A DNA stretch of 64,000 nt from Treponema sp. Its GTDB lineage: Bacteria; Spirochaetota; Spirochaetia; Treponematales; Treponemataceae. Every line of letters begins with the position of its first letter. The stretch's first letter is position 1. Shown piece by piece: positions 19,859 to 25,435 of this stretch. Location of the stretch: the NCBI GenBank assembly GCA_024690865.1, contig JAILON010000106.1:1-64000 (forward strand), in the 5' to 3' direction. Under the pieces are notes generated by a model. That model did not search any database. It was not told the origin of the DNA and was given only the letters and a program-made list of their open reading frames with translations. Position numbers and translations under genes: made by a program.

Positions 19859-19932
19859 CATAAAGGCCTTTATTTAAGGCTCATACCGCAGGAAATTTGT
19901 TCCTAATACACTCACAAAAATAGAGAAGGTGT

Positions 19933-20748
19933 ATGTTAACAAAAGAAAACATCCGCACAGTTTTGAAGGCACTTGATTTTTATTCTGTAGCAGGATTTGA
20001 AAACAAGTATCAAGCAACCTATGGCGATTCAACGGATTCAAGTTTTGCTTTGACAGTTGATCTGAAAAACGAAAAGTTTGTCTATCCTGAAGGAATCCAT
20101 TTTGACCGCGGAACTACACTCGATTTTCACCAGCAGGAAAGTTTTGTTGTTTTTGAATGTATTGCCCGACTTTTTGCTGTCGGCTACCGACCTGAAAATC
20201 TTTGGCTCGAAGGAAAAAATTATCAAGGACAGGATTTAGGCTGGATAGACATTCTTGTAAAGGACAACATAGAAACTGAATACCTTATTATTGAATGTAA
20301 AACTTCTGATTCAACTATAAAAGAGGACGAGTTTTCTAAGCATTGGAAGCGGACTCTTGCAAATGGCGACCAGCTTTTCCGATATTTCAACACTTATTCA
20401 AAAGCGCAGTATCTTTGTCTTTATACGGCAGATTTTGTAGATGAAAAACTTACCGATACATATCACTTGATTACACTCAAAGACAATGAAGAATATTTGC
20501 GTTCTGACAAACGGCTTAAAAGTTACAAATCTTTGCGCGAAAATCAGGGAAGTGCAGAAGAATTCTTTGAAGTTTGGAAAAACACTTACGGCTCTGATTT
20601 CAGTACCAACGGCATGATAGAAAAGGACTCAAAGCCGTTTTACATCGGGCAGAAAAAATACAGCATTGACGACCTTTGCAGGACAGATTGCAGGGCTTGT
20701 ACAAAAAAGGAATGGAAGATTTCTTTAAAGACACCGTTGCCTATGTAG
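19933..20748 (+). CDS. N-terminal nuclease part of a split restriction-methylase gene
   Basis: The 271-residue frame resembles the N-terminal nuclease region of single-chain restriction-modification enzymes. It has GWIDILVKDN and LIIECKTSDS, a D-ExK pattern of the HsdR_N/PD-(D/E)XK type near residues 100-125. After SIDDL (about 248) it reads into unrelated residues and stops. The matching continuation lies in the -1 frame from about 20676. The overlap contains the heptamer A-AAA-AAG at 20703-20709 in the right phase for -1 slippage. Either the gene is broken, probably by an internal deletion, or frameshifting restores part of the fusion. Confidence 0.7.
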   Translation: MLTKENIRTVLKALDFYSVAGFENKYQATYGDSTDSSFALTVDLKNEKFVYPEGIHFDRGTTLDFHQQESFVVFECIARLFAVGYRPENLWLEGKNYQGQDLGWIDILVKDNIETEYLIIECKTSDSTIKEDEFSKHWKRTLANGDQLFRYFNTYSKAQYLCLYTADFVDEKLTDTYHLITLKDNEEYLRSDKRLKSYKSLRENQGSAEEFFEVWKNTYGSDFSTNGMIEKDSKPFYIGQKKYSIDDLCRTDCRACTKKEWKISLKTPLPM

Positions 20749-23708
20749 AAAACAACGAGATTGAAGCAGCGTTTTCATTCCTCAAATCAAAGGCAGACGA
20801 GGCAAAATCAACGATTCTTTCTTATTTCCGCACACTCAAATATTACAACAACAATCCGTTTGCATTCCTTGATGTGCATAACGAGGCTCTTTTCTATCAA
20901 AATGCGGTTATCTTGAAAGACATCGTGAACATGATTCAGGGCATCAAGATTAAAACAGAAAATCAAAACCAGTTTCTCGGCGATTTGTTTGAGGGCTTCC
21001 TTGACCAAGGAATTAAGCAGAGTGAAGGTCAGTTCTTTACGCCGATGCCGATTGTGAAATTCTTGATATCTTCTCTTCCTCTTGAAAATCTTATTGGCGA
21101 ATCTGCCGAACTTCCTAAAGTGATAGATTATGCCTGTGGTGCAGGCCACTTTTTGACGGAGTATGTAAAGCAGATAAAGCCATTTATCGAAAAATACAGA
21201 AAAGCCGAGCTTGCAAAGTACTACGAGCAGATTCACGGAATCGAAAAAGAATACCGTCTTTCAAAAGTAAGTCAGGTAAGTGCATTTATGTACGGTCAGG
21301 ATGGAATCCACATTTTTTACAAAGACGCGCTTTCACGAACGCCAGACATTCAGGAAAATACTTACTCGGTTTTGATTGCAAATCCTCCATACAGCGTAAA
21401 AGGATTCTTGCAGACTTTGGATGAAAAAAACCGTGAGCAGTACGAGCTTTTTAACGACGACATAAATCTTGACTCAAACAATTCAATAGAAACCTTCTTT
21501 GTTGAACGCGCAAAGCAGCTTTTAAAGCCTTCTGGAATTGCGGCTATTATTCTGCCTTCTAGCGTTTTGAGCAAGGGAAACATTTATACCCATTGCCGTG
21601 AAATCATCTTCAAGTATTTTGACGTAATTGCCATTTTTGAAAGCGGGAGCGGCACTTTTGGCAAGACTGGCACGAACACTGCTACTCTTTTTCTGCGTAA
21701 AAAAGCAGAGATGCCTTCAATTTCTGAGCATTACAAGAACAGAGTTGCTGCATGGTTCGGAGGCAATTTTGATGATGACAAATATTATGAAGATTTTGAT
21801 TTGGTTGAGCGTTACTGCGCTCATATCGGCGTAAGTGTTGACGACTACAAAACGCTTTTGAAAAACGAGCCGAACGAAAGTCTCTTGAAAAATGATTTGT
21901 TCGCTTCTTATCTTGATACTCTTGATGTTTATTCTCAAAAAGGCAAGTCCAGCACAAACACAAAGGGCATGAACGAATCTGCAAAGAAAATACGGGCAGA
22001 CATCAGAATCCGTGTCTCAAAGCCGGCATTCAAAAAACTCAGCGGAGAGGAGCAGAACGCAGCCGTCAAAAAAACGACCGTTGACTTCATTTGCGAAATC
22101 GAAAAAGAAAAGCTTTATTATTTCATGCTGCTTTCCGCAAATCCTCAAAATGTAGTGTGCGTAAAGTCTCCGGAGAAAAAGGCGATAAAAGAATTCTTGG
22201 GTTATGAATGGAGCGACACGAAAGGCAACGAGGGGATAAAGTACATTAATGTGCAGGTCAAAAAGAGCGATGACGACGATGAAGAAGCGGACGACACGAT
22301 TGCCCAGATAAAGGGAATCGACGGCATCCAGACCCCACTTTTTAACCCGAAAGATTTTGATGATTCAACAAAAATAAATACAATTATTCGTTCAAATTTT
22401 GAAGGAAAAGCGGTAACGATTCCAGAAATGCTGTCTGAATATGTCAAAACTGTCCGCCTAGTTGATATGGTAGATTTTAGCCGGGCAAATTTTGACAAGG
22501 CGATAAAAACGAGCATGCAAGGTGAAAACGGAAAGTTGAAAATTGAGAGCAAATGGCCGCTGGTGAAGTTGGAAAGCGTTGTTTTTGTGAATCCGTCAAA
22601 AGAGGAAATCAAAAATATTCCTGATGATACAACTGTTTCTTTTGTGGAAATGTCATCTGTCAGCAACAATGGATTTATTGAAACAAAAATCGACAAGCCC
22701 TTAAAAGATTTGCGGAAAGGCAGTTACACATATTTTGCGGAAAATGACATTATTGTCGCAAAGATTACGCCATGTATGGAAAACGGAAAATGTGCCATTG
22801 CAACCGGATTGACAAACAAAATTGGAATGGGAAGCTCTGAATTTCATGTTTTCAGATGTTCCGACAAAATCATCTCTGGATATTTTTTTTCTTTGTTGAA
22901 TCGAGAGAATGTGCGAAAAGTTGCGGAATTAAACATGACAGGAGCAAGCGGTCATCGCAGGGTTCCAGAGAATTTCTATAAGGAAATGCAACTTCCCCTT
23001 CCACCTCTCGATGTTCAGAAAAGCATTGTGGACGAGTGCGAGCAGATTGACGGCGAATATCAGACGGCAGAAAAGACAATAGGAATTTTAGAAAACGAAA
23101 TTTCTGGGATTGTTGGAGCAATCCAAGGGAAAGAAACAAAGCTTTCCGACATTGTTGAGCTTAAGAATGGTCTGAATTACACAAAGAGCAGCACAGGTGA
23201 TGTTATCAAAATTGTAGGTGTAAAGGATTTTCAAAATTATTTCTCTCCAAAAATTGACGAGCTTGAATCAGTTCAAATTGATGGAAAGCTTAGTTCAGAT
23301 TATCAATTGAGGAACGATGACATTCTTGTAGTCCGTTCTAACGGCTCTAAGAATCTTGTTGGAAGATGTATTCTCATTGCAGGTCTTGAAAAACAGCCAA
23401 CTTCTTTCTCAGGATTCACAATTCGTGTTCGTGTAAAAACTGAAAATGTTCTTCCAGTTTTCTTGTGTTATCTATTGCGTTCTGAATCAGTTCGTACAAA
23501 AATGATGACCGATAGCAAAGGTTCAAACATTCAAAGTATAAGCCAAGATGCAATTCTTAGATTAAAATTCCCTCTTCCTCCTCTCGCAAAACAACAAGAA
23601 ATCGTCTCTAAAATCACTGCCATTGAATCAAAAATCGCGGATGCAAAAAAAGTCATGGAAGAATGTTCTACAAAGAAGCGGCGAATTCTGGACAAGTGGC
23701 TGAGGTAG
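20676..23708 (+). CDS. Adenine methylase plus specificity part of the split restriction-methylase gene
   Basis: This frame encodes an N6-adenine methyltransferase followed by an HsdS-like part. SEGQFFTPMPIVKFL (near residue 120), the SAM-binding YACGAGHFLTEY and catalytic NPPY (near residue 230) identify the methylase. Two HsdS-type recognition segments follow in the last 380 residues, ending with PLPPLAKQQEIVSKI. Start is uncertain: TTG at 20676 or ATG at 20712, neither with a good ribosome site. That favours continuation from the upstream nuclease frame. In relatives, as I remember them, about 80-90 extra residues lie before LQDRLQGLYKKGME, so an internal deletion is likely. Confidence 0.8.
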   Translation: MQDRLQGLYKKGMEDFFKDTVAYVENNEIEAAFSFLKSKADEAKSTILSYFRTLKYYNNNPFAFLDVHNEALFYQNAVILKDIVNMIQGIKIKTENQNQFLGDLFEGFLDQGIKQSEGQFFTPMPIVKFLISSLPLENLIGESAELPKVIDYACGAGHFLTEYVKQIKPFIEKYRKAELAKYYEQIHGIEKEYRLSKVSQVSAFMYGQDGIHIFYKDALSRTPDIQENTYSVLIANPPYSVKGFLQTLDEKNREQYELFNDDINLDSNNSIETFFVERAKQLLKPSGIAAIILPSSVLSKGNIYTHCREIIFKYFDVIAIFESGSGTFGKTGTNTATLFLRKKAEMPSISEHYKNRVAAWFGGNFDDDKYYEDFDLVERYCAHIGVSVDDYKTLLKNEPNESLLKNDLFASYLDTLDVYSQKGKSSTNTKGMNESAKKIRADIRIRVSKPAFKKLSGEEQNAAVKKTTVDFICEIEKEKLYYFMLLSANPQNVVCVKSPEKKAIKEFLGYEWSDTKGNEGIKYINVQVKKSDDDDEEADDTIAQIKGIDGIQTPLFNPKDFDDSTKINTIIRSNFEGKAVTIPEMLSEYVKTVRLVDMVDFSRANFDKAIKTSMQGENGKLKIESKWPLVKLESVVFVNPSKEEIKNIPDDTTVSFVEMSSVSNNGFIETKIDKPLKDLRKGSYTYFAENDIIVAKITPCMENGKCAIATGLTNKIGMGSSEFHVFRCSDKIISGYFFSLLNRENVRKVAELNMTGASGHRRVPENFYKEMQLPLPPLDVQKSIVDECEQIDGEYQTAEKTIGILENEISGIVGAIQGKETKLSDIVELKNGLNYTKSSTGDVIKIVGVKDFQNYFSPKIDELESVQIDGKLSSDYQLRNDDILVVRSNGSKNLVGRCILIAGLEKQPTSFSGFTIRVRVKTENVLPVFLCYLLRSESVRTKMMTDSKGSNIQSISQDAILRLKFPLPPLAKQQEIVSKITAIESKIADAKKVMEECSTKKRRILDKWLR
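20703..20709 (+). promoter_or_regulatory. Slippery heptamer A-AAA-AAG in the overlap of two frames
   Basis: In the upstream frame the codons are ACA AAA AAG, which is the dnaX-type -1 slippery heptamer. A -1 shift continues as GGA ATG GAA into the methylase frame. I do not see a clear downstream stem-loop; a weak CAGGG lies about 10 bases upstream. Functional frameshifting is therefore only possible, not shown. Confidence 0.4.
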
Positions 23709-23714
23709 TGGAAA

Positions 23715-24335
23715 ATGAAAATATTTAATTTCGAGTTAAAGACCCTTAAAGATATTCCAAAACAAGTTACTGTGTCTCTTATAGTCCTTTTTGTTGTTGA
23801 TATATTCAGGAAGCTAAAGAACTATCTACCAGCAGCAGGTTCTAATCTGCTTAAATATATTTCGCATACTATAATCCGAAATGCAGCAACTAGGACAGGG
23901 GTATCTCTCATCGATTTTTTCTATGTGCTTATAATTCTGCCTGTTTTACTAGTGTTCATTTTTTTACTTTTCGTTAGCTCATACAATTGGTATAAACAGA
24001 GCAAACAGATGAAGAAATTAGATGGCTCTGATAATATTCTTTATAGCAAAACAAAAAAAGAAATTAAAGATTGTAAGAAAAACGCAATTAGTACCTTGGT
24101 TACCGCTTTTATCGGCATTTTCTGTCTTTTGGAAATATCATTCATCAGCTACTTTCCTGTAGCTTTGAGAGAACAGTTTGATTTAAAACTAAAAAGGATA
24201 GCTCCTTATACAACAGAAGAGACTATTCAAAAATTGGAATCAGATTGGACTATTATGAAAACCAATGAGGATTATTCCGCAATAGATTCTGTTATCTCAG
24301 AAATTGAAGAAGAAAATAATCTAAGGAGGGACTAG
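23715..24335 (+). CDS. Membrane protein of unknown function
   Basis: The 206-residue protein has two to three hydrophobic segments: about residues 18-34 (weak), 73-98 and 132-160. A charged C-terminal tail carries ETIQKLESDW. I recognise no family. It starts 6 bp after the methylase gene and ends 8 bp before a DUF1016 nuclease gene, so all appear to be one transcription unit. It is AT-rich like the methylase gene and unlike the nuclease gene after it. A role linked to the restriction island, such as membrane sensing, is only a guess. Confidence 0.7.
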   Translation: MKIFNFELKTLKDIPKQVTVSLIVLFVVDIFRKLKNYLPAAGSNLLKYISHTIIRNAATRTGVSLIDFFYVLIILPVLLVFIFLLFVSSYNWYKQSKQMKKLDGSDNILYSKTKKEIKDCKKNAISTLVTAFIGIFCLLEISFISYFPVALREQFDLKLKRIAPYTTEETIQKLESDWTIMKTNEDYSAIDSVISEIEEENNLRRD

Positions 24336-24343
24336 AATAATCC

Positions 24344-25435
24344 ATGCAAAATGAAATCAAACAGGATAACTTCAATCAGGTCTACTCGATAATAGAGCTT
24401 CACCGCACGCGGGCTCTGCAGGAAGTGAACAACAATTCCCTTTTCATCGCATGGAACGTCGGCGGTTATGTTTCCAGGAAACTAGAGGCATCCGAATGGG
24501 GCAGTTCCGTCGTGACCGAGCTTTCAGAATATCTGCGCACAAAAGATCCGAGCCTGAAAGGCTACAGCAGAAGGACCTTGTACAAGATGGTCCAGTTTTA
24601 TGAAACCTATTCTGATTTGGCTTTTACCCAGGTGCTGAACCAGTTCAAGCTGAACGAAACGTATCTGCTGCCAGAAAATATCGAAAACCGGGAGAAGCAA
24701 ATTGTGCCATTCCAAATGGCACAAATGCCAAAAGTCCTCCTGCTCATCAACTGGACCTGCCATCAACAGATTTTGAACAGCTGCAAACTCAATGAGCAGC
24801 GTCTCTTCTATATCCTGTACGCCCAGAAAGAACGTCTTGAAGTCAAGGAACTGCAAAGGGCAATCAAAACAAACGCCTACGAGTCCATTCTGGGCAGCCG
24901 TGATTTCCAGTCTGCAGCCCTTCAGGAGACCTATCCCAGCTCATCCCTCATGTTCAAGGACACGGCATACCTTGAGTTTCTGGGACTGCACGGCAGCTAC
25001 AAAGAAAGCAGGCTCTGGAAGGGAATCGTCCAGCACATGAAGGATTTCATCCTTGAACTTGGTAAAGATTTCATCTTTATGGATGAAGAGCACAAGCTAA
25101 AGGTAGGAGGAAAGACATTCAGCATTGATTTGCTGTTCTACCACCGCGGCTTGCAGTGCCTTGTGGCGATTGAGCTGAAAACCGTGGAGTTTGAACCCGG
25201 CTTTATGGGCCAGCTGGAATTCTATCTGGAGGCCCTTGACCAGACAGAAAAACGAAGCAATGAGAATCCGAGCATCGGCATACTGCTCTGCAAGGAAGCA
25301 AACCGCGAGGTCGTGAAATATGCCTTGAACCGCAGCATGAGTCCGACAATGGTAGCTGAGTACCGGGAAAAGCTCATACCTCAGGAAACCTTGCAGCACA
25401 GCCTGGAAGAATTCATAGCTGCGCCCCATGCGTAA
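24344..25435 (+). CDS. DUF1016/YhcG-type PD-(D/E)XK nuclease
   Basis: The 363-residue protein has the DUF1016 helical N-domain (SLFIAWNVGGYVSRKL, about 28-45) and a C-terminal nuclease domain. The nuclease core reads FSIDLLFYHRGLQCLVAIELK near residues 264-285 and supplies the D and E-x-K residues. It is a clearer example of the family than the paralogue at 1959-2978. GGAGGG before the ATG gives a good ribosome site. It is GC-richer than its upstream neighbours. A strong terminator follows at 25509. Confidence 0.9.
   Translation: MQNEIKQDNFNQVYSIIELHRTRALQEVNNNSLFIAWNVGGYVSRKLEASEWGSSVVTELSEYLRTKDPSLKGYSRRTLYKMVQFYETYSDLAFTQVLNQFKLNETYLLPENIENREKQIVPFQMAQMPKVLLLINWTCHQQILNSCKLNEQRLFYILYAQKERLEVKELQRAIKTNAYESILGSRDFQSAALQETYPSSSLMFKDTAYLEFLGLHGSYKESRLWKGIVQHMKDFILELGKDFIFMDEEHKLKVGGKTFSIDLLFYHRGLQCLVAIELKTVEFEPGFMGQLEFYLEALDQTEKRSNENPSIGILLCKEANREVVKYALNRSMSPTMVAEYREKLIPQETLQHSLEEFIAAPHA

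What the first reader, a model, noticed from the sequence alone, without database searches (positions are those of the whole stretch)
19933..23708. Nuclease-methylase-specificity gene split into two frames with an A-AAA-AAG slippery site in the overlap
The nuclease frame ends at 20748, and the methylase frame is open from 20670 in the -1 frame. The heptamer at 20703-20709 is in exact phase (ACA AAA AAG) for -1 slippage into KGMEDFF. No good start exists for the second frame. Either a deletion at about 20672-20676 broke the gene, or slippage still yields a low level of fusion together with a free nuclease-like fragment.
Basis: partly seen in the sequence, partly recalled or inferred. Interest (0 to 1): 0.65.

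Follow-up and report, generated by a model that had tools for sequence, protein, structure and literature searches.

The report
Restriction-modification gene broken by a deletion
A single large gene for a combined DNA-cutting and DNA-methylating defence enzyme has lost about 190-200 bases in its middle, which puts its two halves in different reading frames; this is ordinary gene decay, and the ribosome-slippage motif nearby is most likely a coincidence.

Summary
A nuclease frame (19933-20748) overlaps a methylase-specificity frame (open 20670-23708) in -1 register, and A-AAA-AAG sits in phase at 20703-20709. Together they are one single-chain R-M-S Type IIG/IIB gene: PADLOC profile PDLC03624 (1271 positions) is matched at 1-240 by the first frame and 302-1269 by the second. 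In 16 relatives with a complete junction the gene is one continuous frame, with 62-66 extra residues exactly where the window's frames part. These include 12 invariant columns and correspond to part of BsaXI's multi-helical connector. So a deletion of about 187-199 bp, breakpoint about 20674-20676, broke the gene. The slippage alternative is not supported: no relative is split or has the heptamer, downstream RNA is not unusually structured, a tRNA-Lys(CUU) is present, and a slip would not restore the lost helices. Chance puts an in-phase A6 heptamer in such an overlap about 11% of the time. The rest of the gene shows no further decay, so the event looks recent. Caveat: one draft genome, no reads.

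The parts
19933..20676 (+). 5' part of the broken gene: PD-(D/E)xK nuclease domain and the start of the connector, in the 0 frame
   Evidence: PDLC03624 positions 1-240, E 5.5e-66; aligned to 16 relatives
20248..20301 (+). Nuclease signature D106 ... E121-C-K123 (IDILV ... IIECKT), retained
   Evidence: aligned with relatives; matches the catalytic D and ExK of BsaXI reported in PMC11997821
20674..20676 (+). Deletion breakpoint: about 187-199 nt (62-66 codons) present in all relatives are missing here
   Evidence: relatives L003, L050, L056 (187 nt) and L054, L055 (199 nt)
20677..20748 (+). Out-of-frame tail of the nuclease ORF (CRTDCRACTKKEWKISLKTPLPM) to its stop
   Evidence: no counterpart in relatives in this frame
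20703..20709 (+). A_AAA_AAG heptamer, in phase for -1 slippage; probably incidental
   Evidence: no relative has Lys-Lys at this place
20676..23708 (+). 3' part of the broken gene: rest of connector, N6-adenine methylase, two target recognition domains, in the -1 frame
   Evidence: PDLC03624 positions 302-1269, E 1e-285; N6_Mtase and Methylase_S
21126..21152 (+). Methylase motif I (DYACGAGHF), intact
   Evidence: read from sequence; D457, G461, G463, H464 and F465 of it are invariant in alignment A1
21381..21392 (+). Methylase motif IV (NPPY), intact
   Evidence: read from sequence; invariant in alignment A1

Best explanation
This is a recently broken single-chain R-M-S (Type IIG, AloI/BsaXI-like Type IIB) restriction-modification gene. 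Shown: relative to all homologues a stretch of about 187-199 bp (length 1 mod 3) is missing, which removes 62-66 residues of the multi-helical connector between nuclease and methylase and puts the downstream part in the -1 frame. Inferred: translation from 19933 ends at 20748, giving a nuclease domain with a short nonsense tail; the methylase-specificity part has no good start and lacks conserved connector helices, so the enzyme is most likely inactive for both cleavage and methylation. The slippery heptamer is a Lys-Lys-Gly AAA AAA G that came into phase because of the deletion.
For: One Type IIG profile is split 1-240 / 302-1269 between the two frames. Sixteen relatives are continuous through the junction and carry the missing 62-66 residues; both size estimates are 1 mod 3 as the -1 register requires. 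Of 10 genomes of the family with this enzyme only this one is split. The missing stretch holds 12 invariant columns and aligns with about BsaXI 207-275, inside its helical connector 193-348 (PMC11997821). No recoding signals: no heptamer in relatives, no unusual downstream fold, z -0.32, tRNA-Lys(CUU) present.
Against: The methylase-specificity frame is otherwise fully open (1012 codons, none of the decay expected of an old pseudogene), so continued use of that half cannot be excluded. One draft assembly; no reads. The BsaXI alignment over the connector is weak on its own (8.7 bits).
Confidence: 0.88

Rival explanations
1. Slippage at A-AAA-AAG (programmed, or adventitious rescue) yields a functional low level of nuclease-methylase-specificity fusion.
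For: The heptamer is in exact phase; an AGGG lies 7 nt upstream (20692-20695), which could act as a Shine-Dalgarno-like stimulator.
Against: No relative is split and none encodes Lys-Lys there. Downstream RNA folds no better than shuffles. A second lysine tRNA, CUU, is present, and the high shiftiness of this heptamer in E. coli is tied to its sole tRNA-Lys (PMC5009743). The fused chain would still lack 62-66 conserved residues.
Confidence: 0.04
2. The gene has become two working parts: a solitary methylase-specificity protein started inside the overlap (ATG 20713 or TTG 20676, perhaps by coupling to the upstream stop) and a dispensable nuclease fragment.
For: The 3' frame is fully open with intact motifs I and IV and both recognition domains.
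Against: No good ribosome site before either start; the lost connector residues are among the most conserved of the junction; a recent deletion explains the open frame equally well.
Confidence: 0.06
3. The gap is an assembly artefact or a strain mixture, and the real gene is intact.
For: Draft assembly of 194 contigs with 7.65% contamination; only one assembly was seen.
Against: No long repeat at the junction to mislead an assembler; the junction is about 20 kb inside its contig; no second version of it in the genome.
Confidence: 0.08

Closest known systems
Single-chain RMS Type IIB/IIG enzymes (AloI, PpiI, CjeI, TstI); PADLOC PDLC03624 REase_MTase_IIG
   Same: Domain order nuclease - connector - N6-adenine methylase - two recognition domains; both halves match the one profile (PMC4081073)
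   Different: Here the chain is split into two frames and part of the connector is missing
BsaXI RM subunit (PDB 8w0p), Type IIB
   Same: Best solved relative of the methylase part (E 2.3e-24); nuclease and connector align collinearly through relative L054
   Different: BsaXI has a separate S subunit and a complete connector
dnaX-type programmed -1 frameshift
   Same: Same heptamer A_AAA_AAG in the correct phase
   Different: Not conserved, no supported 3' stimulator, two lysine tRNAs; the frame offset arises from a deletion
Phase-variable Type IIG genes (Campylobacter and others)
   Same: Type IIG gene out of frame
   Different: No long homopolymer or repeat tract at the break; lost codons are not recoverable by a tract change

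Membership tests
Single-chain RMS Type IIB/IIG restriction-modification enzyme | N-terminal PD-(D/E)xK nuclease domain | tested here: met
   PDLC03624 1-240; D106, E121, K123 kept, although an invariant His of the relatives' GH motif is Gln here
Single-chain RMS Type IIB/IIG restriction-modification enzyme | Gamma-class N6-adenine methylase with motif I and NPPY | tested here: met
   Pfam N6_Mtase 2.5e-27; motifs at 21126-21152 and 21381-21392
Single-chain RMS Type IIB/IIG restriction-modification enzyme | Two C-terminal target recognition domains | tested here: met
   Methylase_S, two stretches
Single-chain RMS Type IIB/IIG restriction-modification enzyme | One continuous chain with a helical connector | tested here: not met
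   Two frames; 62-66 connector residues missing: a disrupted member, not a working one
Single-chain RMS Type IIB/IIG restriction-modification enzyme | Cleavage on both sides of a bipartite site, and m6A methylation | not testable with these tools
   Needs enzyme assay and methylome
Programmed -1 ribosomal frameshift (dnaX type) | In-phase slippery heptamer in the overlap | tested here: met
   20703-20709
Programmed -1 ribosomal frameshift (dnaX type) | Stimulatory structure downstream | tested here: not met
   z -0.32 against 200 shuffles; pseudoknots were not tested
Programmed -1 ribosomal frameshift (dnaX type) | Shine-Dalgarno-like stimulator upstream | tested here: inconclusive
   AGGG at 20692-20695, 7 nt before the heptamer
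Programmed -1 ribosomal frameshift (dnaX type) | Conserved split and shift site in relatives | tested here: not met
   16 of 16 relatives continuous, none with Lys-Lys there
Programmed -1 ribosomal frameshift (dnaX type) | Single tRNA-Lys(UUU), the condition linked to high shiftiness of A_AAA_AAG in E. coli | tested here: not met
   tRNA-Lys CUU (contig C100) and UUU (C130) both found; binning contamination of either contig not excluded
Phase-variable Type IIG gene | Hypermutable repeat tract whose length change alone switches the frame | tested here: not met
   Only A6 at the junction; 62-66 codons are missing, so a tract change would not rebuild the family sequence

The most novel reading that the evidence does not exclude
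A Type IIG enzyme tolerates loss of part of its connector and works as two separately made pieces (free nuclease, solitary methylase-specificity protein) plus a rare slippage-made fusion, so that the deletion tuned restriction down while keeping modification.
Probability: 0.03. Interest if true: 0.5.

Novelty: new member of a known kind. Interest (0 to 1): 0.08.

Why it matters
It is mainly a corrective result. A frame break next to a slippery heptamer was shown, by homologues, to be a sizeable deletion rather than recoding. It should be annotated as a disrupted Type IIG R-M gene, and the host probably lacks this activity. Such losses are common in restriction-modification systems (general knowledge, not tested here).

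Tried and rejected
Programmed frameshift: rejected on conservation, folding, tRNA content and incompleteness of the product. Single-base sequencing error: rejected because 62-66 codons are missing. Recombination with another copy, or cassette switching: no second copy of the junction in the genome and no long repeats near it. A short direct repeat as cause of the deletion: TTGCAGG occurs at 20676-20682 and 20688-20694, but homology to the relatives' LQDRLQ already accounts for both copies, and no relative is close enough in DNA to show the ancestral upstream side, so the deletion mechanism cannot be read. Plasmid (nuclease part) and phage (whole gene) searches gave no match; a viral contig scan with the nuclease found no relative. 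AlphaFold of L054 1-650 gave low confidence in the connector (pLDDT about 30-47): helices are predicted there but the packing is not usable. A permissive Pfam scan of the connector gave no meaningful family. A dN/dS test was not tried: the closest relatives are only about 35-42% identical in protein.

Full report
What is there. The nuclease ORF runs from ATG 19933 to the stop ending at 20748. The methylase frame is open from 20670 to the stop ending at 23708 and lies in the -1 register. AAAAAAG at 20703-20709 is read ACA AAA AAG in the nuclease frame and AAA AAA GGA in the methylase frame. A fair Shine-Dalgarno (AGAAGG) precedes 19933; none is well placed before TTG 20676 or ATG 20713.

What gene it is. 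The 3' frame matches N6_Mtase, Eco57I and two Methylase_S stretches. PADLOC's Type IIG model PDLC03624 matches the 5' frame over positions 1-240 and the 3' frame over 302-1269 of 1271. The two frames are thus one gene for a single-chain R-M-S enzyme of the AloI kind, related to BsaXI (PMC4081073; PMC11997821; PDB search). Together they score about 219 + 949 bits, comparable with intact members of the same bacterial family, so apart from the junction there is no sign of decay. The nuclease keeps D106, E121 and K123 of the D...ExK signature, although the relatives' invariant His in the GH motif is Gln here.

What the relatives show. Sixteen homologues with a complete junction come from the same genus (L049, L050, L051, L052, L053, L004), the same family (L054, L055, L056), another family of the same phylum (L058) and Campylobacterota such as Sulfurimonas (L032-L037). 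All are one open frame through the junction. L050 and L052 look near-identical and L054/L055 are 89% identical over the first 650 residues, so the independent number is somewhat lower. Within the window's family, ten genomes carry the enzyme and only the window's is split. In each relative, about 62-66 residues lie between the window's last nuclease-frame match (IDDL, to 20676) and its first methylase-frame match (LQDRLQ, from 20676). The DNA missing is 187 nt by comparison with L003, L050 and L056, and 199 nt by comparison with L054 and L055. Both are 1 mod 3, as a -1 register requires. The missing residues (L054 241-306) include 12 invariant columns and align to roughly residues 207-275 of BsaXI (that stretch of the alignment is weak by itself), inside the multi-helical connector (193-348) seen in its cryo-EM structure (PMC11997821). 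An AlphaFold model of L054 1-650 puts helices there but with low confidence.

Is slippage likely? The heptamer encodes Lys-Lys-Gly in the methylase frame, and any AAA AAA G in that frame automatically falls in phase once the frame is offset by -1. The methylase frame has five such A6N sites, so a 24-codon overlap would catch one about 11% of the time. No relative has Lys-Lys at that place, so none can have the heptamer there. Downstream RNA is not unusually stable. The assembly has tRNA-Lys(CUU) as well as tRNA-Lys(UUU), whereas the shiftiness of A_AAA_AAG in E. coli is linked to its sole lysine tRNA (PMC5009743). Even perfect slippage would make a chain without the connector helices. A low rate of slippage cannot be excluded from sequence; a functional role for it is unlikely.

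Setting. The gene lies in an A+T-rich stretch (35-42% G+C from about 20000 to 24500) between more G+C-rich genes (54-64%), as expected of a horizontally acquired defence locus, and is followed by a DUF1016/YhcG PDDEXK nuclease gene.

Limits. This is one draft genome (91.33% complete, 7.65% contamination), and no reads or second assembly of the species were available. No long repeats flank the junction and no other version of it is in the genome, which argues for a real deletion. Whether the methylase half is still made and active needs a methylome. Verdict: an ordinary, probably recent, deletion-disrupted restriction-modification gene.

Noticed in passing
window 19900-24500: The R-M gene sits in an A+T-rich island (35-42% G+C) between more G+C-rich chromosomal genes (54-64%), suggesting horizontal acquisition.
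   Followed up: partly
window 24344-25435: Downstream gene encodes a DUF1016/YhcG PDDEXK nuclease that matches PADLOC candidate defence models PDC-S02; with 23715-24335, a predicted protein of 206 aa without a family match.
   Followed up: partly
L053 3800-5000 (G013): In this relative the specificity region is disrupted: the main frame ends early and further C-terminal specificity fragments follow in another frame, with a 76-nt repeat 83% identical, perhaps remnants of specificity-domain exchange.
   Followed up: partly
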